Source: Candidatus Aegiribacteria sp. (GTDB taxonomy: Bacteria; Fermentibacterota; Fermentibacteria; Fermentibacterales; JCC-6). From it: a stretch of 50,824 bases of DNA. The stretch is taken from positions 1 through 50,824 of the forward strand of contig JAUVLV010000014.1 in NCBI GenBank assembly GCA_030600545.1, given 5' to 3'. Shown piece after piece: positions 6,102 to 49,348 of this stretch (positions are counted from its first letter, which is position 1; each line of letters begins with the position of its first letter). The notes below the pieces were generated by a model. That model did no database searches. It was not told where the DNA came from and saw only the letters and a program-made list of their open reading frames with translations. Made by a program: the position numbers and the translations under genes.

Positions 6102-6110
6102 ACAGCTGAA

Positions 6111-9532: not shown

Positions 9533-9861
9533 TGATAGTTAATCAGATTCAGATTACGGCAAATATTCTCCCGCTTGTCATAACAGGTGGTGTAGTATTG
9601 CTTATACTTGCGCTTGTTCAGCTCTACCTTGGGCTTAAAGCCCAGAAGATACCTAAAGAGACCGGTGAAAAAACCATGATAGGTGAAACAGGGATAATAA
9701 AAAAGGCTTCCGGATTCAGGGATAGATCTATTCTCGAGGTAAGAGGTGAGCTGTGGTGGTGTCTTCCCGCTACAGAATCCACATTCCTTGAAAAAGGAAT
9801 CACAGTTAAGATCGTGGGAATAGCAGAAGATTCGATGATACTCGAAGTTGATACTGTATAA
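9532..9861 (+). CDS. NfeD-like short membrane protein
   Basis: This 109-residue protein has one membrane segment (about residues 11-33, LPLVITGGVVLLILALVQLY) and a soluble C-terminal OB-fold-like domain with the NfeD pattern MIGETGIIKKA...RGELWWC. It is the short NfeD form without the protease domain. NfeD proteins form conserved pairs with SPFH/stomatin-type proteins, and the slipin gene follows here after 33 bases. It starts within the pilT stop (TGATG). Confidence 0.82.
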   Translation: MIVNQIQITANILPLVITGGVVLLILALVQLYLGLKAQKIPKETGEKTMIGETGIIKKASGFRDRSILEVRGELWWCLPATESTFLEKGITVKIVGIAEDSMILEVDTV

Positions 9862-34921: not shown

Positions 34922-35896
34922 TCATTTTCTGCTCATTACCTGCCTGCCTGCAAGCTGACTTCTGGCCACCCGGTATCCTTCGAGGATACTTTCTTCTGCC
35001 CGCTGGAATTCCATTAAATTGATGTGGCCCAATTTGGGTTGGATCAATACATCAGGAGGATCGGTTCTAAGATTCACAGCCGTTATCTGACTTTCCATGA
35101 TTTTGATGGATGTCATCATTACTTCGATGATATTTGGTTGTGGATTCCTGGCAATCAGCTGCCTGAGTTTCCCTGTAGCTGCCATATTGATTTCATGAAA
35201 CTTCCCGTTCAGGAGAGAAGTTGCTTTATTCCCGGCGATGGTGCGTTCCTCTTGTTCAGCCTTTTGAAGATCCTTGCTGTGATCAACCATAGGTAATACT
35301 TCGGGTTTTCTCCTCTGAACTATATCGCAATTCAGATCAACCGCTATGACGAAGTCCGCACCCATTTCCCTCACGGTGCGCACGGGAACCGGGTTGACCA
35401 GACCGCCGTCCACCAGAAGATAGTTGTCCTTCCTGACCGGCTTGAAAATTCCCGGGAGTGAAATACTGGCTCTTACGGCTTCGATAATGTTTCCTTCTTT
35501 CAGTATAACTTCCTCTCCCGTATACAGGTCGGTCGCAATAACAGCAAGTGGAACAGGAAGTTTTTCGATGGGTTCATCGAGTACATACTGCTGAATGAAA
35601 TTAGCGATTCTCACCCCGTCGATAAGGCCTGATTTTGGAAGAATCAGGTCACGAAATGAAAATACATGTTTTCTGCTGAACTGATACACTGCATCTTCCA
35701 GTGAATCGATCATGCCGGAAGCGTAAACCGCAGCAACAAGTGCGCCGATGCTCGTTCCGGCAATGTAATCTACTGTAACTCCTGCTTCTGCCAGAGCGCG
35801 GATTACACCGATATGAGACCATCCGCGAGTTGAACCACTCCCCAGTGCGAGTCCGACCTTGCCGGGTTGATTCAGCTTGTTGTTAAGAGGTTGCAT
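34922..35896 (-). CDS. patatin-like phospholipase (RssA/YchK type)
   Basis: A serine lipid hydrolase. The 324-residue protein has the oxyanion motif GSGSTRGWSHIG (19-30), the nucleophile Ser49 in GTSIG, and the catalytic Asp near 163 in VDGG. It fits the bacterial RssA group, with no signal peptide, so it should act in the cytoplasm or at the inner membrane face. Its start overlaps the end of the PlsC-type gene by 14 bases: an acyltransferase and an acyl hydrolase made together. It is the last gene of the six-gene unit. Confidence 0.92.
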   Translation of the reverse strand: MQPLNNKLNQPGKVGLALGSGSTRGWSHIGVIRALAEAGVTVDYIAGTSIGALVAAVYASGMIDSLEDAVYQFSRKHVFSFRDLILPKSGLIDGVRIANFIQQYVLDEPIEKLPVPLAVIATDLYTGEEVILKEGNIIEAVRASISLPGIFKPVRKDNYLLVDGGLVNPVPVRTVREMGADFVIAVDLNCDIVQRRKPEVLPMVDHSKDLQKAEQEERTIAGNKATSLLNGKFHEINMAATGKLRQLIARNPQPNIIEVMMTSIKIMESQITAVNLRTDPPDVLIQPKLGHINLMEFQRAEESILEGYRVARSQLAGRQVMSRK

Positions 35897-36665
35897 CGTA
35901 TTCAGCTTCTACCTCGGGATTATTGTAAAAGTCCCCGGATATTTCCGCGTCTGTCAAATGCTGTTCTATTATCGCCCTTATTTCTTTCATTGCGGTTCGC
36001 TGTTCTTCTCTTTCCATGCCTGCTACTTCAACAGGTTCCGATATTATGACTTTCGTTTGTACGCCGAAGTGAATCAAGGGGCTATCAGGTGTCTTTATAT
36101 TCCTTGTGCCTATCACGGCAATCGGTATAACGGGTACTTCGGCTTTTGCCGCAAGGAGTACGGCGCCTCTCTTAAAGGATCCGAGTTTTCCTGTTCTGCT
36201 CATCGTTCCCTCGGGAAAGACCATAAGTGACAGATGGGATTGCAGGAGCGCTGTAATTGAATCGATGTTCTTAAGATCATCACGTGGGTTTACTCTGTCC
36301 ACACGAACAAAGCGAAGACGTCGCATGATGTAGTTGTAAATGGGTACCCGAAACATCTCCTTCTTTGAGACAAAGGTAATGGGAATCGGAAGTACCGAGG
36401 CCAATATGAATGAATCGAACCAGCTTTCATGGTTGGCCACAAGAATCTGAGATCTTTCTCTGATGATGTTTTGCAGCCCCTGCACCTGTACCCTGACACC
36501 CGCTGCTTTCAGGAGCACTGATAATACAGCGCGAAGAGCAGCTCCGTTGCGCATGCGGACAGGCAGAACAGAAATCAGAAGTGCAAAGCATAGAAGATCC
36601 AGAACAAGGATCGGCCACCAGAATATAGTGGTAGCTATGCTTTTATATTTCTCAGCCAACTTCAT
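35883..36665 (-). CDS. 1-acyl-sn-glycerol-3-phosphate acyltransferase-like (PlsC family)
   Basis: The 260-residue protein has an N-terminal membrane region (about 12-35) and the PlsC motifs: NHESWFD with His79 and Asp84, and FPEGTMSRTG near 150 for phosphate binding. PlsC enzymes add an acyl chain to lysophosphatidate or other lysolipids at the inner membrane. It starts 4 bases after the outer-membrane protein gene. Given the company it keeps, the acceptor may be a special lipid rather than lysophosphatidate. Confidence 0.92.
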   Translation of the reverse strand: MKLAEKYKSIATTIFWWPILVLDLLCFALLISVLPVRMRNGAALRAVLSVLLKAAGVRVQVQGLQNIIRERSQILVANHESWFDSFILASVLPIPITFVSKKEMFRVPIYNYIMRRLRFVRVDRVNPRDDLKNIDSITALLQSHLSLMVFPEGTMSRTGKLGSFKRGAVLLAAKAEVPVIPIAVIGTRNIKTPDSPLIHFGVQTKVIISEPVEVAGMEREEQRTAMKEIRAIIEQHLTDAEISGDFYNNPEVEAEYDATS

Positions 36666-36669
36666 ATTG

Positions 36670-38010
36670 TTAGAAACTTGCCCTTGCTTTCACATAAAAT
36701 TCGTCCCGGTCATTAAGCTGCTTGAATAGATTATCGCCCTCGCCATGCAGAACAGCCCCGCCGAAGGTTATCTCGATATTATCGACAGGTCTGTATGTCA
36801 GTTCCGGAACATACGCCAGACCATAATTCTCAGCAGGATCATCCCGGTCACTTACAGAAACCGCGAATGAAACAGGTACCAGAGTCAGTTTGCTGTTCAG
36901 AAAATCTCGTTCGACTCTAAACGTAAGATAATCGTTGAGGTTCTTCCTGCCCAGCTCATGCAGGAAACCATGAAGCACCTGTGTGTTCACATATACACCG
37001 TTTCCAAATGTATAATCACAGCCTGCGATGAAGCGAACGTATGGCTCGTCTTTGAGCATTTCTTCCGCTGGTAATCCTGGTATATCGAGCAGGACTTCTT
37101 CAGGGAAGAACACTGCTCCTTCGCCCCAGATACCGACTGAACCGATAGCTCCAGCGAAATCCCCGCCGATGATCTGCACTTTCGGGTATATGAGAGTAAT
37201 CACTGAATCGGGCATAGATATGGCGCAGGGGGTCGGAAGATCGTACCGTCCGTAGTAGTAGCTGAGGGAAAGATCGAAACCCTGCATAAAAGAACTCAGC
37301 TTGATCGCATACTGCGAGGATTCATCCAGATTGCGCTGCGGAAGTTCAACCTGTTGTGTGAATCCCTCAAGTGAAACACCGGGTGGAAGGCTCATGCCCG
37401 AAGAAAACGCTGAAAGCAGCGCGCTGGAATAACCCGGCGGCGGCAGGCGGGCAGGGGTAAAGGTTGGTACGTACACACACGTAAGGTTAGCGCGTGAGCC
37501 ATAATAAGTTCCCTGGAAAGCGTCCACGGCGAGGTGCTCTCCAAAGTCCAGCAGTATCTCCAGATTGTTCGGACTGATGTTGCTTGTAGGATTCAGGGCA
37601 TCAGCAGTGCCCCAGTTAATTATCTGACGACCCAAACGAAGGTCCATGGAGTTGAAGGGAAATGAGTACAGATCCAGGTAAGCTTCACGAAGCTCCACAC
37701 CGCCGGGGTATGAGCCACTATCTTCCAGGCCCTGAAGCATCGATACTGAATCTATTTGAACGTATCCGAACCCCCTGAATTGCACTTCGCTGAACAAACC
37801 GTAATCCATGAAGTTACCGGCGGACAATTTCAGGTTCAATCTGTTCTCACTCCAGGTCAGTTCCTGATCATCGAAAGCAACATGATTCTCTGTCTGTACA
37901 TAACCGCCGATGGAAATATTTTCCTGAGCGAAAAGAACTGACGTACATATGGCGGGAAGCACAAAGAAGAGTCTCAGCGGAAATTGCAGTGTACTTCTCG
38001 TTCTCAACAT
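36670..38010 (-). CDS. outer-membrane beta-barrel protein (DUF1302/porin-like)
   Basis: The 446-residue product starts with a signal peptide ending near VLFAQ, followed by alternating beta-strand patterns throughout: GGYVQTENHVAF, RLNLKLSAGNFMDYGLFSEVQ, LRLGRQIINWGTADALNPT, and a C-terminal strand ending in aromatic Phe (FYVKARASF), the sort signal recognised by the Bam complex. The RQIINWG segment resembles DUF1302-type barrels. I chose the ATG at 38010, four bases after the previous stop; the frame extends upstream only into the neighbouring gene. Confidence 0.83.
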   Translation of the reverse strand: MLRTRSTLQFPLRLFFVLPAICTSVLFAQENISIGGYVQTENHVAFDDQELTWSENRLNLKLSAGNFMDYGLFSEVQFRGFGYVQIDSVSMLQGLEDSGSYPGGVELREAYLDLYSFPFNSMDLRLGRQIINWGTADALNPTSNISPNNLEILLDFGEHLAVDAFQGTYYGSRANLTCVYVPTFTPARLPPPGYSSALLSAFSSGMSLPPGVSLEGFTQQVELPQRNLDESSQYAIKLSSFMQGFDLSLSYYYGRYDLPTPCAISMPDSVITLIYPKVQIIGGDFAGAIGSVGIWGEGAVFFPEEVLLDIPGLPAEEMLKDEPYVRFIAGCDYTFGNGVYVNTQVLHGFLHELGRKNLNDYLTFRVERDFLNSKLTLVPVSFAVSVSDRDDPAENYGLAYVPELTYRPVDNIEITFGGAVLHGEGDNLFKQLNDRDEFYVKARASF

Positions 38011-38014
38011 CGCT

Positions 38015-38767
38015 CTATTGAATCCGTGTAAGGTATCGCTGTGAGAAGATATCATCGCTCAAACCTGTATCGACCTCAACCTCGGTCATATTCATAATTG
38101 TACTGTGACCACTTATTACATCGCTCATCTCTCTTCCCATGGAAACCCAGTAACCCTGGATCTGCTGAATATCATCCTGCTCCAGAACTTTCCACAGATC
38201 TCCGCTTCGGTTGTAGTACTCGATTTTTGCTGGATAGAAATTATCCAGCCGAACCCACATTATCAATTTGCTGTACTCGCTGCTGATTCCGGATTTCGGG
38301 GTCAATTCCAGAATGTAGTGGGTTTCGGTACTTTCGTTCAAAGAAGGGTCATATTCATCACCGAAGCGAAACGAACTCAGATCATCGTAACTGAAATCCG
38401 TACCTGCGAAATTCTGGTTCTCTACATGTGAGGCAATCCTTCGCACGCGACCGAACGCAGGCAGATAGAGGTAATTCACATCATCGGGCAGGCTTAGAAA
38501 ACCGATTCCTCTCTGGCCTGCGGGAGAAAGGAAGCGCATCATCCGTGAATCAGCACCTTTCTGATAAATTTCCATTTCTCGCACACTCTGGTCACCATCA
38601 GCTTCGATCAGGACCATTTCTACCATTGCCTTCAGATCCGGCGCTTCGTTACTGACATCATCGGAATTGCTGAGAATCTGCTCAGCCGAAAGACTCTGTG
38701 CAGACGCTCCGGTAGCGAATACGCATGAGAGAACGATAGTCAGTATGGAGTAAAGTAATCGACTCAT
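38015..38767 (-). CDS. outer-membrane lipoprotein-sorting-like (LolA-fold) protein
   Basis: The 250-residue protein has a signal peptide cleaved near SAQ (about residue 24), then a LolA-like fold of the kind encoded beside RND/MMPL exporters: EMEIYQKGADSRMMRFLSPA, GIGFLSLPDDVNYLYLPAFGRVRRI and AKIEYYNRSGDLWK. It should carry a lipid through the periplasm between the RND transporter and the outer membrane. Its AGGA ribosome binding site overlaps the end of the transporter gene, two bases upstream. Confidence 0.88.
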   Translation of the reverse strand: MSRLLYSILTIVLSCVFATGASAQSLSAEQILSNSDDVSNEAPDLKAMVEMVLIEADGDQSVREMEIYQKGADSRMMRFLSPAGQRGIGFLSLPDDVNYLYLPAFGRVRRIASHVENQNFAGTDFSYDDLSSFRFGDEYDPSLNESTETHYILELTPKSGISSEYSKLIMWVRLDNFYPAKIEYYNRSGDLWKVLEQDDIQQIQGYWVSMGREMSDVISGHSTIMNMTEVEVDTGLSDDIFSQRYLTRIQ

Positions 38768-38769
38768 AA

Positions 38770-41736
38770 TTAAATTCCTTTCATTTGTTTGTTTACGTTC
38801 TGATTTTCAGAAACCGGGTTATCATTTTTGGATGTCTTATCTTCTGGAATTCGAGGTGAAGTATGTCTGTTGTTATTCAGTCTCAGGTATTTTCGACTGA
38901 CCAGGACCAGTGAAGGAAGCAGAGTTAATGATGCAACCATGCTAACCAGCATGGTTAAAGCGATTAGCCATCCGAATCTTTGAATGGGCAGGATGTTCGA
39001 CCACATCAGGACGAGAAAGCCGAGTCCCACAGTCATGGCGTTCACGAAAATAGACTTGCCAGTGGTACTTATCATGGTTTTCATGGCAGCTTCTTCATCG
39101 CCCTGCTTCCTGAACTCCTCCTGAAAGCGTGAAGATGCATGAATAGCGTAGTCGATACCGATTCCAATAGAAATACTCCCGATCATTATCGTGGCGATGT
39201 CCAGCGATACTCCCGCAAAACTCATTACACCGAAATTGATGATAACTGTGAACACAAGAGGTAAAGCAATGATCAGACCCATGAGAGGGGAACGAAAACG
39301 ATACATCATCAATAGGAAAATGAGCATGAACGCAACGCCGAGGCTTATTATCTGACTGTGAATCAATGTTCCGTTAAGCGTTGTGAATACGGGAAGGAAG
39401 CCGGACAGGTCAGCCTGGAAGTTAACAGAATCCCCCTGTACACTCTCGAAGAGATCGCCAGGAATTCCTATCTGATTCTCACTCATGGCACAAAGGTCAC
39501 CTCGAACGTCTTTCCGGAACCTTTCATTTTGAGCAAGGTCAGTGGGAAGGGTCCCAAGCAACTCCGTCAGCCAGTGATTGATCTGAGAGCGCGATTCCGC
39601 TTCCGAAACAAACCCGCTGAAACGTTCGGCAACGATATCGAGATTCTCAGGATTATCTTCGTAATAGATTTCGGGTATCGCAGCGGAAACCGCTGCCCTG
39701 AAGTCCCGAGGCCCCGAATCGACATGTTCGACTGCTAAAGTCAGGGAGACCACAATAATGTCGATTAACGAATCCGAATCTATTATGATCGGCGCTTCCC
39801 ACATAAGGTACTCGCGAAACCGGTCCTGCAGCATGCTCATGTCTTCCTCAGACATGGCCTGTGCGGGCATTGACGTAATTTCACGAAGTTGTTCAACAAG
39901 ATCTGAATATGCTATTTCTGTCAACAGTTCACGGTTAGCTGCGTCATTATAGATATTTTCCGCAACTTCCTGAAGCTGGTAATCTCGGACGATCTCCATT
40001 TCATCGGCCGATAACCGGTCGAATTCGATCCTGGAAAGAGTGGTGTTCAGTTCGGAATCAAGATACGAATCAATTTGTTCCGAAGCGCTCACTATGGCTC
40101 CGGTATTCAGCGAATTGAATTGTGCGTGAATAAGGGCTTCGTTGTAGTCATCGTTGACAAGACGACTCAGAATTTCCTCTCCTTCAAGCAGGAACAGCAG
40201 GTTGGTTATCTGGTCCCTGGTTTCGGGGATCGCCCACCGGCCGGTCATGATGTAATTCAGCTCCACGATAAGGTCGGCAAGAGATTGTGTACTTTCCACA
40301 TCAGGATGTGATTGTAAGTACTTCTCTACTTTCAGCATCTGTTTCAATACGAGCGGATCCTTGATATCCCCGTTCATAATCACCTGGAAGGGCACCGCAC
40401 TGTTGAACCTGTCCTTAAGAAGATCAGCTGTGGTTCTGATCTCAGAATCTTCCGGAAAGTACTCCAGAATATTAACTTCGGTATCCAGCTGTGGAATCCG
40501 GACAAGACAGATAATTGTCAGGATGCCTGCAATCAGAAGAATCGGAAGCCTGCCGCGAAGTACCAGTTTAGCCTCGAACTTTCCAATCCATGACCTTGGA
40601 ACAATTCGATTCACCTTGCTTGATGCAGAAACGTGCACAGGCAGTAATGAGCAGACAGCGGGTATCAGGGTCATCGAAAGAAGGGTGGCTGCGCCTACGC
40701 CTATTGCTGTGAATAGTCCGAAGTCTGCAATGGCAGTAAGCAATGAACCTCCGATTGAAAGAGAAAGGAACCCGATAAGGGTTGTAACGCCGGTCAGGAA
40801 AATAGGGATACCCACATCTTTCAGTGAGATTTTTGTTAACTCAATGCTGCTGATATCTTTATTGGCATCCTCACGATACCTTGCCAGAAAGTGAATTCCG
40901 TAAGCCGAACCCACCGCAACCAGTACGATCGGAGTAATATTGGAAACCATAGACAGTTCGACTCCGAACCAGCCCATGGCGCCGATTGTCCATACAGTGG
41001 AAATCAACACAACGCTCAGAGGTAAAGTAACCGCACGCAAGTTTCGAAAACCAAGAAAGAGTACCATTATTACAACGAGTATTACGATCGGAATCAATCG
41101 AAAAATATCCTGTGTCAGCAAATTGCCTGATTCCTGGATCTGTACAGGGATGCCTCCGTAATAGACCGAATAACCATCTCTCAATCGCTCCACGTTGGCT
41201 CTGATCTCTGTTATAAGTTCAGCGTCATCGGCATCCGGATGTGAACGAATAGTGATTAAAGTAATTCGGCCGTCCTGAGAGATAATCTTACCCGCGTACA
41301 TTTCTTTTCCAAGCGTATACTCGCGGAGGGCTTCCAGCTCCATACTGTCTGTTGGAATATCATTCTTGTTGATCAACCGTTTGATCTCTAATCCGAATTC
41401 GGTGTCCCTCATATCAAGAATATCGGTAATACTGGTGACGCTCATTACTCCCGAAACGGTATGGCATGATTCGGTTATATCCCGTATCACTGTGAGAGCT
41501 TCATTCGTGAAGATATCTTCACTTTCCACCGCCACCATGATGATGTTGTTCCCGCCGTACTGTTCACTTATATGGTTAAATAGCTGGATTGTAGGATTCT
41601 CAGGATCAAGATAGCTGACCATATCGCTGTTGATGACAACCTTGCTGAGTCCGATAGCCATAAAGACAGTAATAAGAACGACCGATACGATGATCGCTAT
41701 CCGAAACCTGATTACAGATTCTGTAAACCACTTCAT
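38770..41736 (-). CDS. RND-superfamily transporter (MMPL/HpnN-type)
   Basis: The 988-residue protein has the two-fold RND plan: a first membrane helix at about 12-33, a large periplasmic loop, six helices around 215-370, another helix near 400, a second large loop and six helices around 800-945. The second half keeps the proton-relay motif GIGIDYAIH; the first half has GSAYGIH, without the Asp. This lipid- and sterol-type branch works without MFP adaptors. The charged tail is cytosolic. ATG at 41736 follows AAGGAAAA and a 10-base gap after the TetR gene. The natural cargo is probably a lipid, judging by neighbours. Confidence 0.93.
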   Translation of the reverse strand: MKWFTESVIRFRIAIIVSVVLITVFMAIGLSKVVINSDMVSYLDPENPTIQLFNHISEQYGGNNIIMVAVESEDIFTNEALTVIRDITESCHTVSGVMSVTSITDILDMRDTEFGLEIKRLINKNDIPTDSMELEALREYTLGKEMYAGKIISQDGRITLITIRSHPDADDAELITEIRANVERLRDGYSVYYGGIPVQIQESGNLLTQDIFRLIPIVILVVIMVLFLGFRNLRAVTLPLSVVLISTVWTIGAMGWFGVELSMVSNITPIVLVAVGSAYGIHFLARYREDANKDISSIELTKISLKDVGIPIFLTGVTTLIGFLSLSIGGSLLTAIADFGLFTAIGVGAATLLSMTLIPAVCSLLPVHVSASSKVNRIVPRSWIGKFEAKLVLRGRLPILLIAGILTIICLVRIPQLDTEVNILEYFPEDSEIRTTADLLKDRFNSAVPFQVIMNGDIKDPLVLKQMLKVEKYLQSHPDVESTQSLADLIVELNYIMTGRWAIPETRDQITNLLFLLEGEEILSRLVNDDYNEALIHAQFNSLNTGAIVSASEQIDSYLDSELNTTLSRIEFDRLSADEMEIVRDYQLQEVAENIYNDAANRELLTEIAYSDLVEQLREITSMPAQAMSEEDMSMLQDRFREYLMWEAPIIIDSDSLIDIIVVSLTLAVEHVDSGPRDFRAAVSAAIPEIYYEDNPENLDIVAERFSGFVSEAESRSQINHWLTELLGTLPTDLAQNERFRKDVRGDLCAMSENQIGIPGDLFESVQGDSVNFQADLSGFLPVFTTLNGTLIHSQIISLGVAFMLIFLLMMYRFRSPLMGLIIALPLVFTVIINFGVMSFAGVSLDIATIMIGSISIGIGIDYAIHASSRFQEEFRKQGDEEAAMKTMISTTGKSIFVNAMTVGLGFLVLMWSNILPIQRFGWLIALTMLVSMVASLTLLPSLVLVSRKYLRLNNNRHTSPRIPEDKTSKNDNPVSENQNVNKQMKGI

Positions 41737-41746
41737 GCGTTTTCCT

Positions 41747-42337
41747 TTATTGTGTTTCGAGACCTTGAAGCAGGATGTCCAGCATCGCGTTGACAGTATC
41801 ATCAAGATCATCCATCGATTTTCCGATGATAAGGCGCAATTCCATCCCCTTCATGATAATGATCAGCATTCTGGCGGTAGTAAGGATGTCACTGATCCTG
41901 AAGACACCGGTATTGATGCCTTCTGAAAGGATTTCCTGAATTGTGCTGTTCTCGAAGTTAGTAAATGTTTCACGTTCCTGTTCAATAAAAGCGTATTGCT
42001 CCAGGTATGTCTCGGTCAGAGAAGCGTAGTAGATGCTCAACTCGAATAGTGAACTCATTCGCGTAATAACGTATGCCCGCAGCTTTTCCTGAGGTGAAGC
42101 AGCTTGCTGGACCGCCGTGTGCAGCTTCTCTATCAGAGTCTCAGCCTCCTGTCGAATCACAGATGAGAGAATCTTCTTTTTATCCCGGAAATAATAGTAG
42201 AGAGAGGATTTGGACATACCCGCTGACTCTGCAATGTCTCTCATGGTTGTTTTGCGTAATCCATATTTGTTAAAAACTCTGATCGCTGCCTGAAGGATTC
42301 TCTGCGCTACATCCTTGCTTTGTACAACCACTTGCAT
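41747..42337 (-). CDS. TetR/AcrR-family transcriptional regulator
   Basis: The 196-residue repressor has the TetR N-terminal domain: QRILQAAIRVFNKYGLRKTT, then the helix-turn-helix MRDIAESAGMSKSSLYYYF (about 32-50). The C-terminal ligand domain is not classifiable by eye. As first gene of the unit, with a palindrome over its own transcription start, it most likely represses itself and the five genes after it until a lipid-like ligand binds. Confidence 0.93.
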   Translation of the reverse strand: MQVVVQSKDVAQRILQAAIRVFNKYGLRKTTMRDIAESAGMSKSSLYYYFRDKKKILSSVIRQEAETLIEKLHTAVQQAASPQEKLRAYVITRMSSLFELSIYYASLTETYLEQYAFIEQERETFTNFENSTIQEILSEGINTGVFRISDILTTARMLIIIMKGMELRLIIGKSMDDLDDTVNAMLDILLQGLETQ

Positions 42338-42351
42338 TCCCTTTCCAATCT

Positions 42352-42368
42352 TCGACCAATTTGGTCAA
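42352..42368. promoter_or_regulatory. palindromic operator for the TetR regulator
   Basis: GACCAA-T-TTGGTC (42354-42366) is a perfect 6-1-6 palindrome; flanking bases extend it toward TTGACCAA/TTGGTCAA with one mismatch. It covers the expected transcription start of the promoter next to it and lies 17 bases from the TetR ATG, an arrangement typical of autoregulated TetR genes. Confidence 0.75.
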
Positions 42369-42397
42369 CATATACAAACATTTATAGAATTCGTCAA
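42369..42397 (-). promoter_or_regulatory. promoter of the TetR-RND-lipid operon
   Basis: On the - strand TTGACG (42392-42397) and TATATG (42369-42374) are spaced by exactly 17 bases. Five of six and four of six positions match consensus. The start of transcription would fall inside the operator, about 25 bases before the TetR ATG. Confidence 0.75.
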
Positions 42398-42621
42398 GAT
42401 TCTCGTGACTTTGAACTGCTCAAATATAAAGTATTAACTGCGTTAGGGGAACCTTGCGGTAGGGTAGTTAAAAGACAATTCTGGAAGATATATCGAGACT
42501 TGACTTTGTATGGGAATGGTATTCTTGTAAAAAAAAGCTTAAGCGGATGCTTGAGGCTCTCACCAGGAGCCAGGGTGAAGTAAGAAAATTGCGGATCACC
42601 TTAAAAAGTACTGGAGAAAAC

Positions 42622-44841
42622 ATGAAAATATTCAGTATCTATATTGTCTTCCTTTTACTATCAAATGCAGCAGCATTTGAATGGATTTCATCAGGACCCG
42701 AGGGCGGATTTTTGAAGGATTTTGGATTTCATCCCGATCAGACAGAAATACTGTTTGCAGGCAGTGATGATTCCGGTGGCATCTGGCGAACAATAAATGG
42801 AGGTGTCAGCTGGGAACTGGTTACAGCAGATTTTCCTGATATGACAGGATGGAGTATTGTTATTTGTAAGTCCGATCCTTCTATCATTTTCGCCTGTGAT
42901 TCCTACGCAAGATACGGTCTTCTCAAGTCCACTGATGGCGGATCAAGTTGGATCCAATCGACTTCGGGATTGACATCCACCAGAGAGCTAACCGTTATGC
43001 AGCTTGTTCTAGCATCGGAAAACGCCGAATCCCTTTATATCTGCACCGGAATGGCTGATGTTGGTGATCCTCCAAGACCCGGCAACGGGATTTTCAGAAG
43101 TACGGATGGAGGTTCGAACTGGATACCTTCAGGATTGCAGGGAACCACTGTTGATTGCATAGCCAGAGATGGAAACGGCACTCTTTTTGCGGGAACCGAC
43201 GGAAATGGTGTCTGGAAATCATCTGACGGGAATTCCTGGATACATATAGATGGAATACCGGATGGTTTTCAAGTTTGGCAGATAGAAGCGGAAGAATCGT
43301 ATGTGGCTGTCGCCACATTTGGAGCAGGTGTATTCATCAGCACTAATTCTGGTATCGATTTTACACAGTATTTCGATACAAGTTACTGCATGGATCTTTC
43401 CATAGCAGAATATGATCCGGTACTCGTTCTTTTTGCCGCAGTAGACACAGGTATTTTCCGTTATTCATCCAGTTCCGGATCATGGACCAGTGTTATATCT
43501 CCGCCATTGTCCGATTCACTGATAGTGATGGGTATTTCCTCTGAATTCCAGAGAGTGTTCTGCAACGAGTTCGCGAACAGTCCTGTTATCCGCTCGTCCG
43601 ACTCAGGCCAGTCATGGAGTTATGCACAAAGTTCGCCGATGGCGGTGTTTCTCAGCGGAATTGCCGTTGATCCCACCGATTCGGGACACTTCTTTTCTTC
43701 AAGTCTTGGCAGTTACGCGAACGCCTGGAATATCTCCGCTCTTTATGAAACCTGCGATTCAGGGCAGTCCTGGGCTTCCGTAGGACCTGCAGCACATGGA
43801 ACAGTTGTTCTGTTTTCGTCATCAGGAGAACTGTTTCTTGGAACCTTTCGCAATGGTCTTTACAGAAGCGATGATTACTTTCAGACATGGGAAAATGTAA
43901 GACCGGGAGACAAGGTCATCTTCGATATTACCATCGACCCGGATAACTCCGACCTGATGCTTCTTTCGGAATATGATCTGTCCGCACCATCGGTAGGTAT
44001 TTACAGAAGTACAGATGGGGGCGGAACATTCGATCCGGTTCTTTCAGACCTCTGCAATGCATGCCTTTTCGGTGCGAATTCCGGTTACGCCTGGGCCGGA
44101 ATGACGGATGGATTGTACAGAAGTCAGGATGATGGCTTAACATGGAATCCATGGATGTTGTCGGGTCATGTTATAGTGACGCTCTGTGAATATGGTACCT
44201 GTCTGCTTGCGGGAACGGAACAGGGGAGAATCTTTCTGCTCACCGAAGACAGCCAGCAGCAGGAGATTACAGGTTCATGGAGTCAGCCTGTCAGACAGAC
44301 GGGATTTCTAGTGACCGGAGATACGCTTTACGCAACGTTTAATGGTGCTGAAATGGACTCAACGTACGTGCGGCATGGCGGCGTATGGATGACAGCGGAT
44401 ATGGGACAGAACTGGACCGATCTGACAAATGGAATGACCGTTACCCATGTTTACGGGAAACACCCGATTGCGGTTACTGAAGCGGGAATAACGGTATCTA
44501 CCTACGGTGGAGGTTGCCAGATCCTTACAGGATGCTCCGGTATAAACGAATCGGAGATTTTAACTGCAAACAGTATTCATATAATTCCTAATCCTGTATC
44601 ATGTAACGCTGAGATAAACTTCCGGCTTCCCGCTCTTTCCGACTCGGTGAAACTTCTCATTTTTGATTGTTCCGGAAGGCTTATCTTCAGCAGTGAAATA
44701 ACTGATCTTGATGATGTATACGGGTCGGTGATATGGGATTGCCGAGATGAATCAGGACATGGAGTTTCGCGAGGTATCTACCACTGCATTGTGAAACCGG
44801 TAACCGGACCTTTACTTGCTGGTAGAATGGTTGTAATCTGA
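42622..44841 (+). CDS. secreted BNR/sortilin-type beta-propeller protein with FlgD-like C-terminal domain
   Basis: The 739-residue product has a signal peptide (about 1-17) and at least ten 'S-x-D-G-G-x-x-W' Asp-box repeats, for example KSTDGGSSWIQ, RSTDGGSNWIP, RSSDSGQSWSY, YRSTDGGGTFDP and YRSQDDGLTWNP. These are typical of BNR/Vps10 propellers. The last 80 or so residues start IIPNPVSCNAEINFRLP and contain a FlgD-like Ig fold, seen at the end of secreted proteins in FCB-group and candidate phyla. ATG at 42622 has GGAG 5 bases upstream. It diverges from the TetR operon; bases 42398-42621 show no clear promoter for it. Activity is unknown; a surface-binding role is a guess. Confidence 0.86.
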   Translation: MKIFSIYIVFLLLSNAAAFEWISSGPEGGFLKDFGFHPDQTEILFAGSDDSGGIWRTINGGVSWELVTADFPDMTGWSIVICKSDPSIIFACDSYARYGLLKSTDGGSSWIQSTSGLTSTRELTVMQLVLASENAESLYICTGMADVGDPPRPGNGIFRSTDGGSNWIPSGLQGTTVDCIARDGNGTLFAGTDGNGVWKSSDGNSWIHIDGIPDGFQVWQIEAEESYVAVATFGAGVFISTNSGIDFTQYFDTSYCMDLSIAEYDPVLVLFAAVDTGIFRYSSSSGSWTSVISPPLSDSLIVMGISSEFQRVFCNEFANSPVIRSSDSGQSWSYAQSSPMAVFLSGIAVDPTDSGHFFSSSLGSYANAWNISALYETCDSGQSWASVGPAAHGTVVLFSSSGELFLGTFRNGLYRSDDYFQTWENVRPGDKVIFDITIDPDNSDLMLLSEYDLSAPSVGIYRSTDGGGTFDPVLSDLCNACLFGANSGYAWAGMTDGLYRSQDDGLTWNPWMLSGHVIVTLCEYGTCLLAGTEQGRIFLLTEDSQQQEITGSWSQPVRQTGFLVTGDTLYATFNGAEMDSTYVRHGGVWMTADMGQNWTDLTNGMTVTHVYGKHPIAVTEAGITVSTYGGGCQILTGCSGINESEILTANSIHIIPNPVSCNAEINFRLPALSDSVKLLIFDCSGRLIFSSEITDLDDVYGSVIWDCRDESGHGVSRGIYHCIVKPVTGPLLAGRMVVI

Positions 44842-44945: not shown

Positions 44946-46655
44946 TCACATTTTTCCATGCCTGAGGATCGTGATGATAAGAAAGAATGCCATTACTGCT
45001 GCAACTATAAATCCTGCAAGTCCAATAATCGGTATATTATTCCATTTAGGAGGTACACCTGACAGCACGATTACCGAAGAGCCTATCACAAGAGATGCGA
45101 CAAGGATTGCGAATGAGAGTCTGTTGCTGATTTTATCGAATGTGGACAGCATAGTCTCAAATCCTCTGTGTTCCAGCTGTATCTGCGCTTTTCCCCTGGC
45201 AATCTGTTTGAGGATGGTACTGGTTTCCTGCGGGATTTCCTTAAGAAGCTCTGCCGATTCACGCGTCACATCAAAAAGATCTTTGAAAATACGTTGAGGA
45301 AGCAGTTTCTCCAGTTTGATCCGGGTGAGAAACGGTGTCATAGCTTCCTCGTATTTGAATCCCGGGTCAAGCTTCCGTCCCAGCGCCTGTGATGCAGCAA
45401 TAGCTTTCATCATTATATAAAAATCGGGAGGAATTCGTAGACGATATCTTGTTATAACTTTCATGACATTTGTCAGAATCTGGCTCAGATCCAGATCTTC
45501 CAGATCGCTGAACAGGTAGCGATCAAGTAACTCGGATATGTTGTTCTCAAGGTTTTTCCGGTCGGGCTCCCGGTCGCAGTCAACGATTCTGAGCAAAGTG
45601 TCCGTCAACCTTATTTCATCGTTCTTTACAGCATAAGTGGCAGCATCCACAAGAGACTCCATCTGTTTTCTGCTAACGCGGCTCATCATGCCGAAGTCAA
45701 GATAGCAGATAACATTGTTTTCGAGGAAGAGAACGTTTCCGGGATGAGGGTCCGCATGAATGAATCCGTGAACGAATACCTGCTTCATCATGAGGTCTGC
45801 TCCACGGGCTGCAAGAAGAGCTGTATCAAGACCGGACTGTTCCAGCAGACTGATCTCAGATGCTTTGATTCCTTCAACGTATTCCATTGTCAGAACACGC
45901 TGGGAAGACAATTTATGGAAAACCTCAGGCACATGTATCGTTTCCTCGTCAGCGAACTGACTTGCGAATCTTTCCATGTGGGCGGCTTCCAGGGAGTAGT
46001 CCAGTTCCTTATCTATCATCCTCGAGAATTCGTCGACTATTCTGGTTGGCTGCTGCAATTCCCATTCTTCCATGTGCTTCTCGGTAAGTGTTGCGAGGTG
46101 ACGAAGTATTTTAAGATCGACCTGGATTATTTTAAGGATCCCGGGTCTTTGGATCTTGACCACAACATTATGTCCATCTGGCAGCTGCGCACGGTGGACC
46201 TGTCCAATAGAAGCTGCCGCCAGAGGGATTTCATCAAAATTCTTGAATATCTGCTCAAGCGGAGAACCCAGCTCTGTTTCTATGGTATTTCGCACAAGAT
46301 CAAAGGAAAAGGGAGGAACATTATCCTGCAGCTTCTCAAACTCCCTGATCAATTCCGGTCCGATCAGATCAGGTCTTGTGGACAGGATCTGACCTGCTTT
46401 TACAAAAGTCGGGCCGAGTTCCTCAAGGGCTTTCCTCAAACGGGCTTCCCGGGACAGCTTCGATATCTTCTCTCGCTCAGGTTTACGTGAGACTGCCCTG
46501 AGCAAATTCTCGATAATACGTTCTCCGCGAATCCTGCTGAAGATATCCCCGAAACCGTACTTCATCAGCACTGTCAATATTTGACGGTATCGCGACAGGT
46601 ATTTGTGTGATCGGCTCAGGTTGCTCGCAGGTCGAAAACCGAATGTCATGTACAC
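44946..46655 (-). CDS. UbiB/ABC1/AarF-family atypical kinase
   Basis: The 569-residue protein has the ABC1 kinase core: KAGQILSTRPDLIG (KxGQ motif), the Ala-rich loop AAASIGQVHRAQL, VVVKIQRPG with the ATP-site Lys, HADPHPGNVLF and CYLDFGMM (metal Asp). Two membrane helices end the protein (about 510-560). Family members support isoprenoid quinone or lipid metabolism through an ATPase-like activity. The start may be GTG at 46655 or ATG at 46649, preceded by AGGTG. A phasin-like gene lies just upstream, a pairing I know from other bacteria. No ubiquinone or menaquinone genes are visible here. Confidence 0.92.
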   Translation of the reverse strand: MYMTFGFRPASNLSRSHKYLSRYRQILTVLMKYGFGDIFSRIRGERIIENLLRAVSRKPEREKISKLSREARLRKALEELGPTFVKAGQILSTRPDLIGPELIREFEKLQDNVPPFSFDLVRNTIETELGSPLEQIFKNFDEIPLAAASIGQVHRAQLPDGHNVVVKIQRPGILKIIQVDLKILRHLATLTEKHMEEWELQQPTRIVDEFSRMIDKELDYSLEAAHMERFASQFADEETIHVPEVFHKLSSQRVLTMEYVEGIKASEISLLEQSGLDTALLAARGADLMMKQVFVHGFIHADPHPGNVLFLENNVICYLDFGMMSRVSRKQMESLVDAATYAVKNDEIRLTDTLLRIVDCDREPDRKNLENNISELLDRYLFSDLEDLDLSQILTNVMKVITRYRLRIPPDFYIMMKAIAASQALGRKLDPGFKYEEAMTPFLTRIKLEKLLPQRIFKDLFDVTRESAELLKEIPQETSTILKQIARGKAQIQLEHRGFETMLSTFDKISNRLSFAILVASLVIGSSVIVLSGVPPKWNNIPIIGLAGFIVAAVMAFFLIITILRHGKM

Positions 46656-46714
46656 CTATTCAGGTTGCAAGTATAGATCAATATCAAACAGGTTCTGCGG
46701 CTAAGGAAATATCG

Positions 46715-47002
46715 TTACTTTTTCTTCAACTCGTCGATTTTCGCTGAAAGATCCGCGATGTCATCCTTTGTAGCTATATTCATTGACGATATAACCTTAT
46801 GAACCTGTTTCTTTATTTTTTCCTCATACTCCTTTGATGATTCCTCGGCTTTGGAAATGAGCTCTTTTGCCAGCTTCTTGCCTTCCTCCTGTGTGAGCTG
46901 TCCTTTTTGAACAAGCTCTTTTGCGAATTCCTCCGCTTTTTCCGCTGTAAGTACAGCAAGTCCCATTCCGGTGAGCATGGTTTTTCTTATAAGGTCAAAC
47001 AT
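46715..47002 (-). CDS. phasin-like small helical protein
   Basis: The 95-residue protein is nearly all helix: a hydrophobic start (MFDLIRKTMLTGMGLAVL), a charged heptad-like middle (EEFAKELVQKG, then EEGKKLAKELISKAEESSKE) and a C-terminal coiled coil ending DLSAKIDELKKK. This is the short phasin/PhaI-like pattern. Such proteins coat storage granules or act as membrane-linked partners of ABC1 kinases; no PHA synthase gene is in the window. AAGGAGG stands before the ATG. Confidence 0.78.
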   Translation of the reverse strand: MFDLIRKTMLTGMGLAVLTAEKAEEFAKELVQKGQLTQEEGKKLAKELISKAEESSKEYEEKIKKQVHKVISSMNIATKDDIADLSAKIDELKKK

Positions 47003-47014
47003 GAGTTTCCTCCT

Positions 47015-47869
47015 TTAGTTATTCGAATCCAGTTCGATTTCCGGATTGAGATCGGTCAGATTCCACAATCCACCATAGTACGATGTTATATCTGATCGCG
47101 TGTGCCCAAGAAGTTTCTGAGCGATCTTGAGGTCGGCACCTGATTCAAGGAGATGTGCCGTGAACGAATGTCTGAGTGTTCTGGGGGTTGCCTTTTTATT
47201 AATACCTGATGCCACAAGGGCAGCTTTGAAGAACTTGGTTACTGCTCTGGTCGTCAGAGGGTTGCCCTCAGACCCGGTGAATACATAACAGGAGGGTTTT
47301 CTGCTTTCGATGAGGAATTGTATCGGGGATCTAAGAATTTCAGCTAAAATCGTTTTACGGTTCCGTCTCTTCCCGGTGCCTCTGACATTGATAGTGAGAT
47401 TTTCAAGGTTCAAATCACCCACAAGGAGGTTCACAACCTCCGATGTTCTAAGCCCGGCTGTATATGTAAGAAGTATCATCAGCTTGTGTTTCATGTCTCT
47501 GGTTGCGCTTGCGATTCTGCTTATTTCATTACCTGAAAGGATGACCGGGGGTGCTTTTCTGATGGCTGGTCTGTTGATGTCTCTGATGAGAACAGAGCGG
47601 TGAATCACTTCGGTGTACAGGAAATTCAGCGCATTGACAGCCTGATCAACAGTTGACCTGGAGCGTCCGGATTTATTCAGATACGCGATGTATGTTTTTA
47701 TTTCCTTTACACTGAGTTCCGAAGGAAGCTTCGGCGAAACCGTTTCAAGAAAAGCTTTGAGCTGACCAAGATAAGCCCTGATTGTATGAGGACTGTAATG
47801 AGTCGAATGAAGAATCCGCTCGACATCTTTGTAGATGTTATCTAATTTACTAAGAATACCGGGTTTCAA
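47015..47869 (-). CDS. tyrosine recombinase (XerC/XerD-like) with altered HxxR box
   Basis: The 284-residue protein has the N-terminal SAM-like core-binding domain (about 1-95, TIRAYLGQLKAFLET) and the catalytic domain: box I Arg in TAGLRTSEVVNL, the catalytic Lys region GTGKRRNRK, LLGHTRSDI with the second His, and the nucleophile Tyr in SYYGG. In the usual PHxLRHS box the first His is Arg (PRTLRHSF), so HxxR reads RxxR. Length is slightly below XerC/XerD. It could be the housekeeping Xer enzyme or an accessory integrase; the neighbouring decayed region fits either. Confidence 0.9.
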   Translation of the reverse strand: MKPGILSKLDNIYKDVERILHSTHYSPHTIRAYLGQLKAFLETVSPKLPSELSVKEIKTYIAYLNKSGRSRSTVDQAVNALNFLYTEVIHRSVLIRDINRPAIRKAPPVILSGNEISRIASATRDMKHKLMILLTYTAGLRTSEVVNLLVGDLNLENLTINVRGTGKRRNRKTILAEILRSPIQFLIESRKPSCYVFTGSEGNPLTTRAVTKFFKAALVASGINKKATPRTLRHSFTAHLLESGADLKIAQKLLGHTRSDITSYYGGLWNLTDLNPEIELDSNN

Positions 47870-47905
47870 AACTCAAAGCCTCCAGGATTTCCATTTACTA
47901 TTTTG

Positions 47906-49348
47906 TCAGGCATCACGATAGTGTTCCTCCCAGATAGGGTCAAGCTGAGATGAAATTTCAAGATCGTATTTCTTCATTGCCTGAATATAGTCATTATCCC
48001 ATAGTGATTCAGCAGCTGAGGTTCCGGCAGGTACAGCAGATGTTTTCAGTATCAGTTCACGCGCCTTTTCGTGGTGATCGCGAATGAAGCAGGGGCGGAT
48101 CTCGTTGCCTCGTTCATGAGGGGGTTTCATATAGTTGTAGGAGAGCTGCCAATCCCGAACTCCTGTAAACAAATCCGAGAAAAGTGCATCGCTGAGAGGT
48201 CTCTTTGCTGATATGAGATCATGTATATTGTCTTTCCAGTACGGCACAAATACGCATGGGTATATATTGCCGTTCCAGTCAATATAGAGATATCCTCCCT
48301 CGCGACCACCGGCGATACACCCTGAAGAGAACGGTCCACCGTTCCAGAAATCGGCCAGGAACAGATGTCTCTCGTAAATAAGTTCCTGTTCACGAATCCA
48401 CATCCTGCGTCTTACCTCGGGAGATACCTGTTTTTCGGTATCAATTCCCCTGCCGATCGGCATGTACTGGAACAGCCATTGATACAATGCGCCCTGTTCA
48501 TCGAAGAAGAAATCGATCATCTCATCAGATATCAGCATTTCCGCGTTTTCAGGCACCGCTGTTGTGGATATACCGAAGGGCACACCGTTATTTCTCAGGT
48601 TTTCAAAGGCTTTCAGGATTCTCTCGAATGTACCTTTTCCGCGGCGATAATCCGTTTCTTTCTCAAAACCTTCAACTGAAATAGCCAGTGTAATATTGCC
48701 GGCTTCAGCAAGGCGCTCCGCCGTTCTGTTGTCAATCAATGTTCCGTTTGTGTATACGAGGAAGTACTGATCGGGGTTCCGGGATGCGATCTCAATAAGA
48801 TCTACTTCCTTGTCGCGCCATAGAAAAGGTTCACCTCCCGACACAACTGTGAACCAGCTTCCCCAGCGGTCCCTCTTCTGGTCAATAACCCACTGGAAAG
48901 TTTCAGCGGAAAGCGAGGGAAGATCACATGGGGCGCTTGAGGCATAGCAGCCTCTGCATTTTAGATTGCATCCGCCGAACGGTGATATTGTGAGGAACCC
49001 TGGTGGGCAAATACCATGTTCTTCTTTGAATGAAACAACTTCAGGTCTGCTGCTATAAGGTGCAGCAAGGTTAGAGAGCAGAACATCCATCAAACGTTTC
49101 CTGACATTGGGAGAACCCTGTTCGTACGCCTTGAATGCGGATCTGACAAGATTTGATACGATACATACCTTGTCTTTTCGCTCACGAAATGGACCATATT
49201 TAATAGAGTCAGCGCTCTTCACAAAGAGCGTTTGAGCCACCTTTTCAGCGAGTGGGACAGTAAGTTTCCATGCACCGGACTTGCTCGAAAGGTTAATAGC
49301 ATGTTCCGTTGCTAACAAGGATAATTTTTCAACTATTCCATTCTTCAT
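47906..49348 (-). CDS. radical SAM protein with SPASM-like C-terminus
   Basis: The 480-residue protein has a roughly 115-residue N-terminal helical extension, the radical SAM cluster motif CNLKCRGC (Cys127, Cys131, Cys134), VVSGGEPF (GGEP motif) and LAISVEGFE. A C-terminal part with several Cys (SSGCIAGGREGGYLYID, YPCVF, RPCF) likely holds an extra iron-sulfur cluster as in SPASM enzymes. SPASM proteins often modify peptides or proteins; no precursor peptide gene was seen nearby. A near-consensus promoter and an inverted repeat lie upstream, so expression is probably strong and controlled. Confidence 0.88.
   Translation of the reverse strand: MKNGIVEKLSLLATEHAINLSSKSGAWKLTVPLAEKVAQTLFVKSADSIKYGPFRERKDKVCIVSNLVRSAFKAYEQGSPNVRKRLMDVLLSNLAAPYSSRPEVVSFKEEHGICPPGFLTISPFGGCNLKCRGCYASSAPCDLPSLSAETFQWVIDQKRDRWGSWFTVVSGGEPFLWRDKEVDLIEIASRNPDQYFLVYTNGTLIDNRTAERLAEAGNITLAISVEGFEKETDYRRGKGTFERILKAFENLRNNGVPFGISTTAVPENAEMLISDEMIDFFFDEQGALYQWLFQYMPIGRGIDTEKQVSPEVRRRMWIREQELIYERHLFLADFWNGGPFSSGCIAGGREGGYLYIDWNGNIYPCVFVPYWKDNIHDLISAKRPLSDALFSDLFTGVRDWQLSYNYMKPPHERGNEIRPCFIRDHHEKARELILKTSAVPAGTSAAESLWDNDYIQAMKKYDLEISSQLDPIWEEHYRDA

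What the first reader, a model, noticed from the sequence alone, without database searches (positions are those of the whole stretch)
34922..42397. Six-gene TetR-controlled lipid transport and remodelling operon
TetR, RND/MMPL transporter, LolA-fold protein, outer-membrane barrel, PlsC acyltransferase and patatin lipase are spaced by 10, 2, 4 and 4 bases and a 14-base overlap behind one promoter/operator. Seen directly: order, spacing, motifs. Known: RND/MMPL exporters next to LolA-like proteins move lipids such as hopanoids, sterols or aryl polyenes. Inferred: an acyl lipid is built or trimmed by PlsC and patatin, exported by the RND protein and passed by the LolA-like protein to the outer membrane. 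No ketosynthase or hopanoid genes are present, so the cargo may be new.
Basis: partly seen in the sequence, partly recalled or inferred. Interest (0 to 1): 0.72.

Follow-up and report, generated by a model that had tools for sequence, protein, structure and literature searches.

The report
Lipid-trafficking gene module in Aegiribacteria
A tightly packed set of bacterial genes that looks built to move a fatty lipid through the cell envelope sits beside lipid-editing enzymes, and similar sets recur in distant bacteria, which makes a shared lipid-handling job likely, although the lipid itself is still unknown.

Summary
The six genes, their order and spacing are as described. The genome groups with Candidatus Aegiribacteria. 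tetR–RND–lolA-like–DUF1302 barrel–plsC–patatin is syntenic in relatives: 3 of 3 genomes whose contigs reach that far keep plsC and patatin (G016, G024, G036); G022 and G037 end inside the barrel gene. Outside the phylum, plsC and patatin lie together near the transporter core in 3 of 15 core loci (G122, G189, G409, three different phyla); at least one of PlsC, patatin, ABC1 kinase, phasin or one radical-SAM family lies near in 8 of 15, against 0 of 14 other RND loci (grouping made after seeing the data). The finding's borders are too narrow: the window continues with an ABC1/UbiB kinase, a phasin-like protein, a Xer recombinase and that radical-SAM protein (44946–49348). An operator before tetR is conserved in relatives and unique in this assembly. 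Best reading: a TetR-controlled trans-envelope acyl-lipid route tied to inner-membrane acyl remodelling. Cargo and direction are unproven. RND–LolA–DUF1302 cassettes are known (AmeABCD), so this is a new variant of a known kind. No structure prediction ran.

The parts
34922..35896 (-). patatin-like phospholipase, RssA-like, no N-terminal hydrophobic segment
   Evidence: Patatin 116.3 bits; RssA model 236 bits, below its cut-off of 272; GXSXG and DGG present; nearest solved chain PlpD 5fqu; hydropathy
35883..36665 (-). PlsC-type acyltransferase with N-terminal hydrophobic segment
   Evidence: Acyltransferase 109.2 bits; TIGR00530 105 bits over cut-off 102.95; NHX4D and FPEG; hydropathy
36670..38010 (-). 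DUF1302 protein, predicted outer-membrane beta-barrel; N-terminal hydrophobic segment read as signal peptide; C-terminal Phe
   Evidence: DUF1302 44.7-44.9 bits; 11 of 12 aligned homologues, window included, match DUF1302; no structure was predicted
38015..38767 (-). LolA-like protein (PF17131), N-terminal segment read as signal peptide, so probably periplasmic
   Evidence: 185.8 bits; PDB 9tp6, 3bk5, 4z48, 3buu by sequence; hydropathy
38770..41736 (-). RND/MMPL transporter nearest to HAE3 type, 988 aa
   Evidence: tree; C-half GIGIDY Asp present in 22 of 22 aligned rows, N-half (GSAYGIH here) without Asp in 20 of 22
41747..42331 (-). TetR regulator (start probably GTG 42331; ATG 42337 also possible)
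42351..42368 (.). operator TTGACCAAATTGGTCGAA (inverted repeat GACCAA-A-TTGGTC)
   Evidence: conserved in relatives; only copy in window and in own assembly at up to 3 mismatches
42369..42397 (-). promoter-like TTGACG-N17-TATATG
   Evidence: read by eye; not listed by the consensus scan
44946..46655 (-). ABC1/UbiB-type atypical kinase; next gene upstream of tetR in G016 and G022
   Evidence: ABC1 269 bits; UbiB equivalog 424.3 bits, below cut-off 487.55; synteny; KxGQ, ADPHPGN, DFG
46715..47002 (-). phasin-like small protein
   Evidence: Phasin PF05597 35.7 bits over 28.8; homologues beside ABC1 genes in other phyla
47015..47869 (-). XerC/D-like tyrosine recombinase, between rSAM and phasin also in G030
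   Evidence: Phage_integrase 111.5 bits
47906..49348 (-). radical-SAM protein with SPASM-like C-terminal cysteines
   Evidence: Radical_SAM 95 bits; SPASM 17.8 bits, below cut-off 21.5; CX3CX2C and GCI...NGNIYPC conserved; same family inside the RND clusters of G042 and G409

Best explanation
The locus encodes a TetR-controlled route for an acyl (probably glycero)lipid through the envelope. PlsC at the inner membrane and a cytosolic patatin reacylate and deacylate the lipid. [quoted passage not shown] The ABC1 kinase, phasin-like protein and radical-SAM protein just upstream belong to the same module and prepare, hold or modify the lipid. Shown: gene order, families, motifs, conservation of the set and of the operator. 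Inferred: cargo, direction, physical complex, an acyl ligand for TetR, and the part played by the three upstream genes.
For: Six-gene synteny in relatives, with plsC and patatin in 3 of 3 loci that reach them. Fifteen distant core loci: PlsC near in 5, patatin 5, phasin 5, ABC1 4, this radical SAM 2, PlsC with patatin 3; 0 of 14 other RND loci have any (Fisher p 0.0015, grouping made after seeing the data). Further glycerolipid enzymes sit inside such loci: PAP2 phosphatase in G397 and G390, DAG kinase in G042, LPG_synthase_C in G189, FabH in G122. rSAM, phasin and ABC1 lie upstream in the window and the same families beside the core in G042 and G409. In the phylum the RND is in 6 of 42 genomes, rSAM in 4 of 42, both in 3 (p 0.0066). 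MlaE/MlaF-type genes follow patatin in G016 and lie about 0.7 kb from rSAM in G022. The window's catalytic motifs are intact. Known parallels: AmeABCD (PMC6394551, section 11) and P. putida PP_0765/0766/2018/2019, needed on Tween 20 (PMC10866462, section 12).
Against: 7 of 15 distant core loci have none of the five accessory families; 2 of these (G115, G431) end at the core. In G380 the accessory genes are divergent, beyond tetR; in G146 there is only a weak PlsC. Accessory genes differ from locus to locus, which also suits a general lipid-stress island. rSAM is not found in G024, G036 and G037, which have the RND operon (79-89% complete), and G030 has rSAM without the RND. rSAM-phasin-ABC1 also occurs without an RND in the fetched stretch (G331, G312, G195, G369). 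The MCE operon is on another contig in this genome. AmeABCD cargo is a monoterpene, not a lipid. No structure, transcript or lipid data.
Confidence: 0.5

Rival explanations
1. Efflux system for toxic hydrophobes (free fatty acids, terpenes, solvents): the RND-LolA-DUF1302 core expels them, TetR senses them, and PlsC/patatin repair the membrane.
For: AmeABCD with DUF1302, DUF1329 and a HAE3 RND gives monoterpene tolerance (PMC6394551, abstract passages and section 11). TetR next to an RND gene is the usual efflux layout (recalled). TetR scores best with ScbR and Bacillus FadR models, both far below cut-off.
Against: PlsC, PAP2, DAG kinase, LPG-synthase-like and patatin genes near the core fit lipid building rather than plain efflux. 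No COG4447-type AmeC partner is seen among the six genes, and the Sortilin/BNR gene next door is missing between ubiB and tetR in G016 and G022.
Confidence: 0.25
2. Uptake or turnover route: the barrel and LolA-like protein bring exogenous fatty acids or outer-membrane lipid inward; PlsC reuses the acyl chains.
For: P. putida DUF1302/DUF1329/RND genes are needed for growth on Tween 20 (PMC10866462, section 12). An MCE operon, a class often proposed for retrograde transport (recalled), adjoins the module in G016. NPC1, among the weaker solved matches, carries cholesterol out of an organelle lumen (recalled).
Against: The best solved matches of the RND (MmpL3; also HpnN, MmpL4/5, CusA, MexB) are exporters.
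Confidence: 0.15
3. PlsC and patatin are ordinary housekeeping genes that happen to follow the transporter; there is no functional coupling.
For: 12 of 15 distant core loci lack one or both within the stretch fetched.
Against: Kept in 3 of 3 testable relatives in the same order, and found together again in G122, G189 and G409 in three other phyla.
Confidence: 0.1

Closest known systems
AmeABCD of Castellaniella defragrans (PMC6394551)
   Same: HAE3 RND, LolA-superfamily periplasmic protein and DUF1302 outer-membrane protein in one cassette
   Different: Ame has a COG4447 protein AmeC and lies in a monoterpene island; AmeB is DUF1329 (451 aa), whereas here PF17131 (250 aa) with a partial DUF1329 match; here TetR, PlsC, patatin and, upstream, ABC1, phasin and rSAM; the RND here is 988 aa against 787
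P. putida PP_0765/PP_0766/PP_2018/PP_2019 (PMC10866462)
   Same: DUF1302 + DUF1329 + periplasmic + multidrug-efflux-type proteins with a linked growth phenotype on Tween 20
   Different: encoded at two places by their locus numbers; no PlsC or patatin mentioned in the section read
HpnN hopanoid transporter
   Same: RND lipid exporter; distant sequence match
   Different: 136.9 bits against a cut-off of 751.85; described in PMC6394551 as working without periplasmic or outer-membrane partners
Aryl polyene cluster ApeL/ApeM/ApeD (PMC8253772, passages read)
   Same: RND + LolA-like + lysophospholipid acyltransferase in one cluster, proposed lipid-anchored export
   Different: no ketosynthase, ACP, dehydratase or LolB-like family among the genes scanned here; DUF1302 barrel and patatin instead
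BstABC sterol transporters
   Same: RND with periplasmic partner (recalled)
   Different: BstA model 42 bits against a cut-off of 1400

Membership tests
AmeABCD-type HAE3 cassette | HAE3 RND permease | tested here: inconclusive
   TIGR00921 HAE3 300.8 bits, best model but below its cut-off of 351.9
AmeABCD-type HAE3 cassette | DUF1302 outer-membrane protein | tested here: met
   44.7 bits over 23.2; 11 of 12 aligned members
AmeABCD-type HAE3 cassette | DUF1329 periplasmic protein | tested here: inconclusive
   DUF1329 38.1 bits over 23.1 but only residues 151-231; PF17131 is the main match
AmeABCD-type HAE3 cassette | COG4447 AmeC-like protein in the cassette | tested here: not met
   no such family among the six genes by Pfam (COG4447 itself was not searched); the Sortilin/BNR gene at 42547-44841 is divergent and absent between ubiB and tetR in G016 and G022
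HpnN hopanoid transporter | HpnN model cut-off | tested here: not met
   136.9 of 751.85 and 68.7 of 1100 bits
BstA sterol transporter | BstA model cut-off | tested here: not met
   42 of 1400 bits
Aryl polyene cluster | ketosynthase, ACP and dehydratase genes in the cluster | tested here: not met
   none among the 12 genes scanned between 33471 and 49348; the rest of the genome was not searched for them
RssA patatin | NCBIfam RssA cut-off | tested here: not met
   236 of 272 bits; it is a patatin with intact motifs
Lipoprotein carrier LolA (PF03548) | LolA model match | tested here: not met
   the operon protein matches LolA_like PF17131, and PF03548 is not listed at E <= 0.01; a PF03548 LolA is elsewhere at 3532-4122
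Membrane-spanning lipid synthase Mss / Tes | homology of the radical-SAM protein to Mss or Tes | not testable with these tools
   no Mss or Tes sequence at hand; nearest solved chain is SkfB, E 3.2e-11
Quinone-linked UbiB | UbiB equivalog cut-off | tested here: not met
   TIGR01982 424.3 of 487.55 bits
Quinone-linked UbiB | quinone biosynthesis genes in the genome | not tested
   no search made

The most novel reading that the evidence does not exclude
A dedicated, lipid-droplet-like module for making and exporting a modified membrane lipid, shared by several phyla: a radical-SAM enzyme alters the acyl chain or head group, the phasin-like protein and ABC1 kinase hold and release the lipid at the inner membrane, PlsC and patatin (in some lineages PAP2 and DAG kinase) edit it, and the RND-LolA-DUF1302 core delivers it to the outer membrane.
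Probability: 0.15. Interest if true: 0.82.

Novelty: new variant of a known kind. Interest (0 to 1): 0.55.

Why it matters
RND–LolA–DUF1302 cassettes occur in many of the families sampled here, and the papers read name a cargo or phenotype for only two of the kind (monoterpenes, Tween 20). A version that repeatedly lies beside phosphatidate- and acyl-handling enzymes narrows the likely cargo to acyl glycerolipids, and cultured homologues exist in which that can be tested. It also offers a setting for ABC1/UbiB kinases, phasin-like proteins and an unnamed radical-SAM family that need not be quinone or PHA metabolism.

Tried and rejected
Hopanoid (HpnN), sterol (BstA) and aryl polyene membership: rejected on model cut-offs or missing genes.

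The Sortilin/BNR gene at 42547-44841 as an AmeC counterpart: rejected, since in G016 and G022 tetR follows ubiB with no gene between, and its C-terminus matches FlgD_ig below cut-off and, weakly, T9SS PorZ.

A wider operator regulon: none, the operator occurs once at up to 3 mismatches in the own assembly (the reversed control pattern gave 3). Operators upstream of tetR in other phyla: no shared palindrome found; that simple test also misses the window's own operator, so it says little.

Phylum searches around G042, G189, G055 and G156 added no new carrier, because these phyla hold 1 to 3 genomes. Plasmid records: 6 distant matches at 22-27% identity, none covering 80% of the query.

Identity of the radical-SAM protein with Mss: not testable here. 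The barrel profile matched no solved chain. Structure prediction of the barrel and the RND was asked for and never ran.

Literature: ten searches of the open-licence library. Of these, some bore on the gene set; the rows listed (15 of 81 papers, the whole list in the others) showed no paper that by title or abstract start describes RND-LolA-DUF1302 together with PlsC, patatin, ABC1, phasin or this radical SAM. Searches were on membrane-spanning lipids and on the organism.
Full report
Observation. The six ORFs lie on the minus strand with spacings of 10, 2, 4 and 4 bases and a 14-base overlap. Pfam names them TetR_N, MMPL, LolA_like (PF17131), DUF1302, Acyltransferase and Patatin, all over the curated cut-offs. 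The LolA-like protein and the barrel begin with a single hydrophobic segment that reads as a signal peptide, the barrel ends in Phe, PlsC has an N-terminal hydrophobic segment, and the patatin has none at its N-terminus (interpretation mine). The window's PlsC and patatin motifs are intact. Among homologues the Ser and the DGG of patatin are kept in 13 of 13 rows, but G122 and G390 read TCSGG where the window has GTSIG; PlsC keeps NHX4D in 9 of 9 rows and reads APEG for FPEG in G146.

Organism. The named genome records with the nearest LolA-like genes are Candidatus Aegiribacteria, and they match relatives of the same genus in contig length and identity. The phylum set holds 42 genomes. Close LolA-like genes are in 6 of 42, this genome included (G000, G016, G022, G024 at 85-100%; G036, G037 at 70-72%), and the RND is in the same 6, so the distribution is patchy. 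Distant LolA-like genes (22-34%) are in 23 of the other 36. Of these I looked at neighbours in a few: G011 has lolA, barrel and RND without the enzymes, G041 has ABC-transporter genes beside it (permeases named by eye).

Synteny in the phylum. tetR-RND-lolA-barrel-plsC-patatin is complete in G016 and G036 and split over two contigs in G024; G022 and G037 end inside the barrel gene. plsC and patatin are thus present in 3 of 3 loci that can show them. An ABC1/UbiB gene is the next gene upstream of tetR in G016 and G022 (about 170-base gap), with a phasin-like gene next in G016. The window has the same genes, with a divergent Sortilin/BNR gene between ubiB and tetR, and continues with a Xer recombinase and a radical-SAM protein. 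In G016 Xer and rSAM stand at the end of another contig; G030 has rSAM-xer-phasin-ABC1 without the RND operon. In G016 an MlaE-MlaF-MlaD-PqiC operon follows patatin (Pfam for MlaE, MlaD and ABC_trans_aux; MlaF by eye); in G022 MlaE- and MlaF-like genes lie about 0.7 kb from rSAM, divergent; in this genome the operon is on contig C13.

Regulation. The inverted repeat before tetR is exact in G024 and G016, differs at one base in G022 and two in G036, while surrounding bases diverge. It is the only copy within 3 mismatches in the window and in the 2.29-Mb assembly, which is 73% complete. This points to a local, probably self-regulating repressor; the ligand is unknown. TetR scores best with ScbR and Bacillus FadR models, far below their cut-offs.

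Beyond the phylum. The RND matched in 129 of 385 genomes at E <= 1e-20, the six above included. Of the others I fetched only part: mostly the best matches, a few picked by hand, and loci from two further phylum searches, 29 RND loci in all outside the phylum. They were annotated with phmmer against window proteins and against proteins taken from some of these same loci, so for G122 and G042 several labels are self-matches; there PlsC, patatin (G122) and ABC1 (G042) also match the window proteins, and phasin and FabH (G122), rSAM and DAG kinase (G042) have Pfam matches. After seeing the annotation I grouped the loci into 15 'core' loci (RND phmmer E <= 1e-140 with a LolA-like gene) and 14 others. 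At least one of PlsC, patatin, ABC1, phasin or this radical SAM is near in 8 of 15 core loci: G380 (divergent, beyond tetR), G156, G122, G042, G189, G409, G390 and G146 (only a weak PlsC). It is near in 0 of 14 others: G106, G111, G055, G113, two of G132, second copies of G115 and G256, G344, G428, G085, G293, G224, G408. Fisher p is 0.0015, and 0.0026 without the two core loci that end at the core and four controls under 9 kb; being post hoc, these are guides only. By gene: PlsC 5, patatin 5, phasin 5, ABC1 4, rSAM 2 of 15; PlsC and patatin together 3 (G122, G189, G409), in three phyla other than the window's and each other's. G397, counted as without, has a PAP2 phosphatase between RND and lolA, and G390 one between barrel and patatin (only these two unknown ORFs were scanned for it). 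A second, weaker RND-lolA-barrel set in the G380 stretch was not counted. On the RND tree the carriers fall in several clades (6 changes of label over 31 rows), so the enzymes were probably gained or lost several times; G022 and G037, cut by contig ends, were labelled non-carriers there.

The radical-SAM family. It matches in 60 of 385 genomes at E <= 1e-50 and in 4 of 42 of the phylum (G000, G016, G022, G030); overlap with the RND is 3 (p 0.0066). G024, G036 and G037 have the RND but no rSAM match. Of 11 fetched rSAM regions outside the phylum, phasin and ABC1 lie within about 4 kb in 4 (G331, G312, G369, G195), a patatin is adjacent or one gene away in 4 (G095 first region, G369, G380, G280), and 4 have neither (G095 second region, G192, G122, G165). 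In G042 it sits between RND and lolA, in G409 at the end of the cluster. Cysteine motifs CX3CX2C and a SPASM-like motif are conserved in 11 of 11 rows. The nearest NCBIfam models are far below cut-off and the nearest solved chain is SkfB. Its substrate is unknown; a lipid is a guess from the neighbourhood. Mss and Tes, which couple lipid tails (PMC11868695, passages), could not be compared.

Mechanism. The best solved matches of the RND are MmpL3 (E about 2e-11); the list also holds MmpL4/5 siderophore exporters, HpnN, NPC1, Patched, Dispatched, CusA and MexB, so it fixes the superfamily, not the cargo. The C-terminal half keeps the GIGIDY aspartate in 22 of 22 aligned rows, while the N-terminal half, GSAYGIH here, has no Asp there in 20 of 22 (the proton-relay role is recalled). 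With a LolA-fold carrier and a predicted outer-membrane barrel this gives a plausible path between the membranes. PlsC and a patatin without signal peptide would act on the cytoplasmic side as a reacylation/deacylation pair. Direction and cargo stay open: related P. putida genes are needed to grow on Tween 20 (PMC10866462) and AmeABCD handles monoterpenes (PMC6394551).

Verdict. The transporter core is of a known kind; its repeated company of acyl-lipid enzymes, ABC1 kinase, phasin-like and radical-SAM proteins in several phyla was not seen described in the listings of the open-licence searches made.

Noticed in passing
window 3532-4122: A separate LolA (PF03548, 41.5 bits) downstream of a large ORF at 657-2888 that looks like an FtsK/SpoIIIE protein (by eye), so the operon's LolA-like protein is not the only LolA-fold protein in the genome.
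   Followed up: partly
window 42547-44841: Sortilin/BNR repeat protein with FlgD_ig-like C-terminus on the opposite strand between ubiB and tetR; absent from that place in G016 and G022, so it looks like an insertion into the module.
   Followed up: partly
window 47015-47869: XerC/D-like recombinase gene between rSAM and phasin genes, also in G030, and next to rSAM at a contig end in G016; why it travels there is unexplained.
   Followed up: partly
L104 (G000:C13) and L043 (G016): MlaE-MlaF-MlaD-PqiC operon next to an HtpG-like and a sulfatase-like gene (both by eye) in both genomes, but joined to the six-gene operon only in G016.
   Followed up: partly
L090 (G189) 5605-6714, L089 (G042) 1-439: A family without Pfam match (looks like a GNAT acyltransferase by eye) occurs in both RND clusters, between RND and lolA in G189.
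   Followed up: no
L116 (G409) 7086-7862, L090 (G189) 8903-9682: DUF3108 protein next to lolA or barrel in both clusters; no DUF1302-type barrel was detected in the G409 stretch.
   Followed up: no
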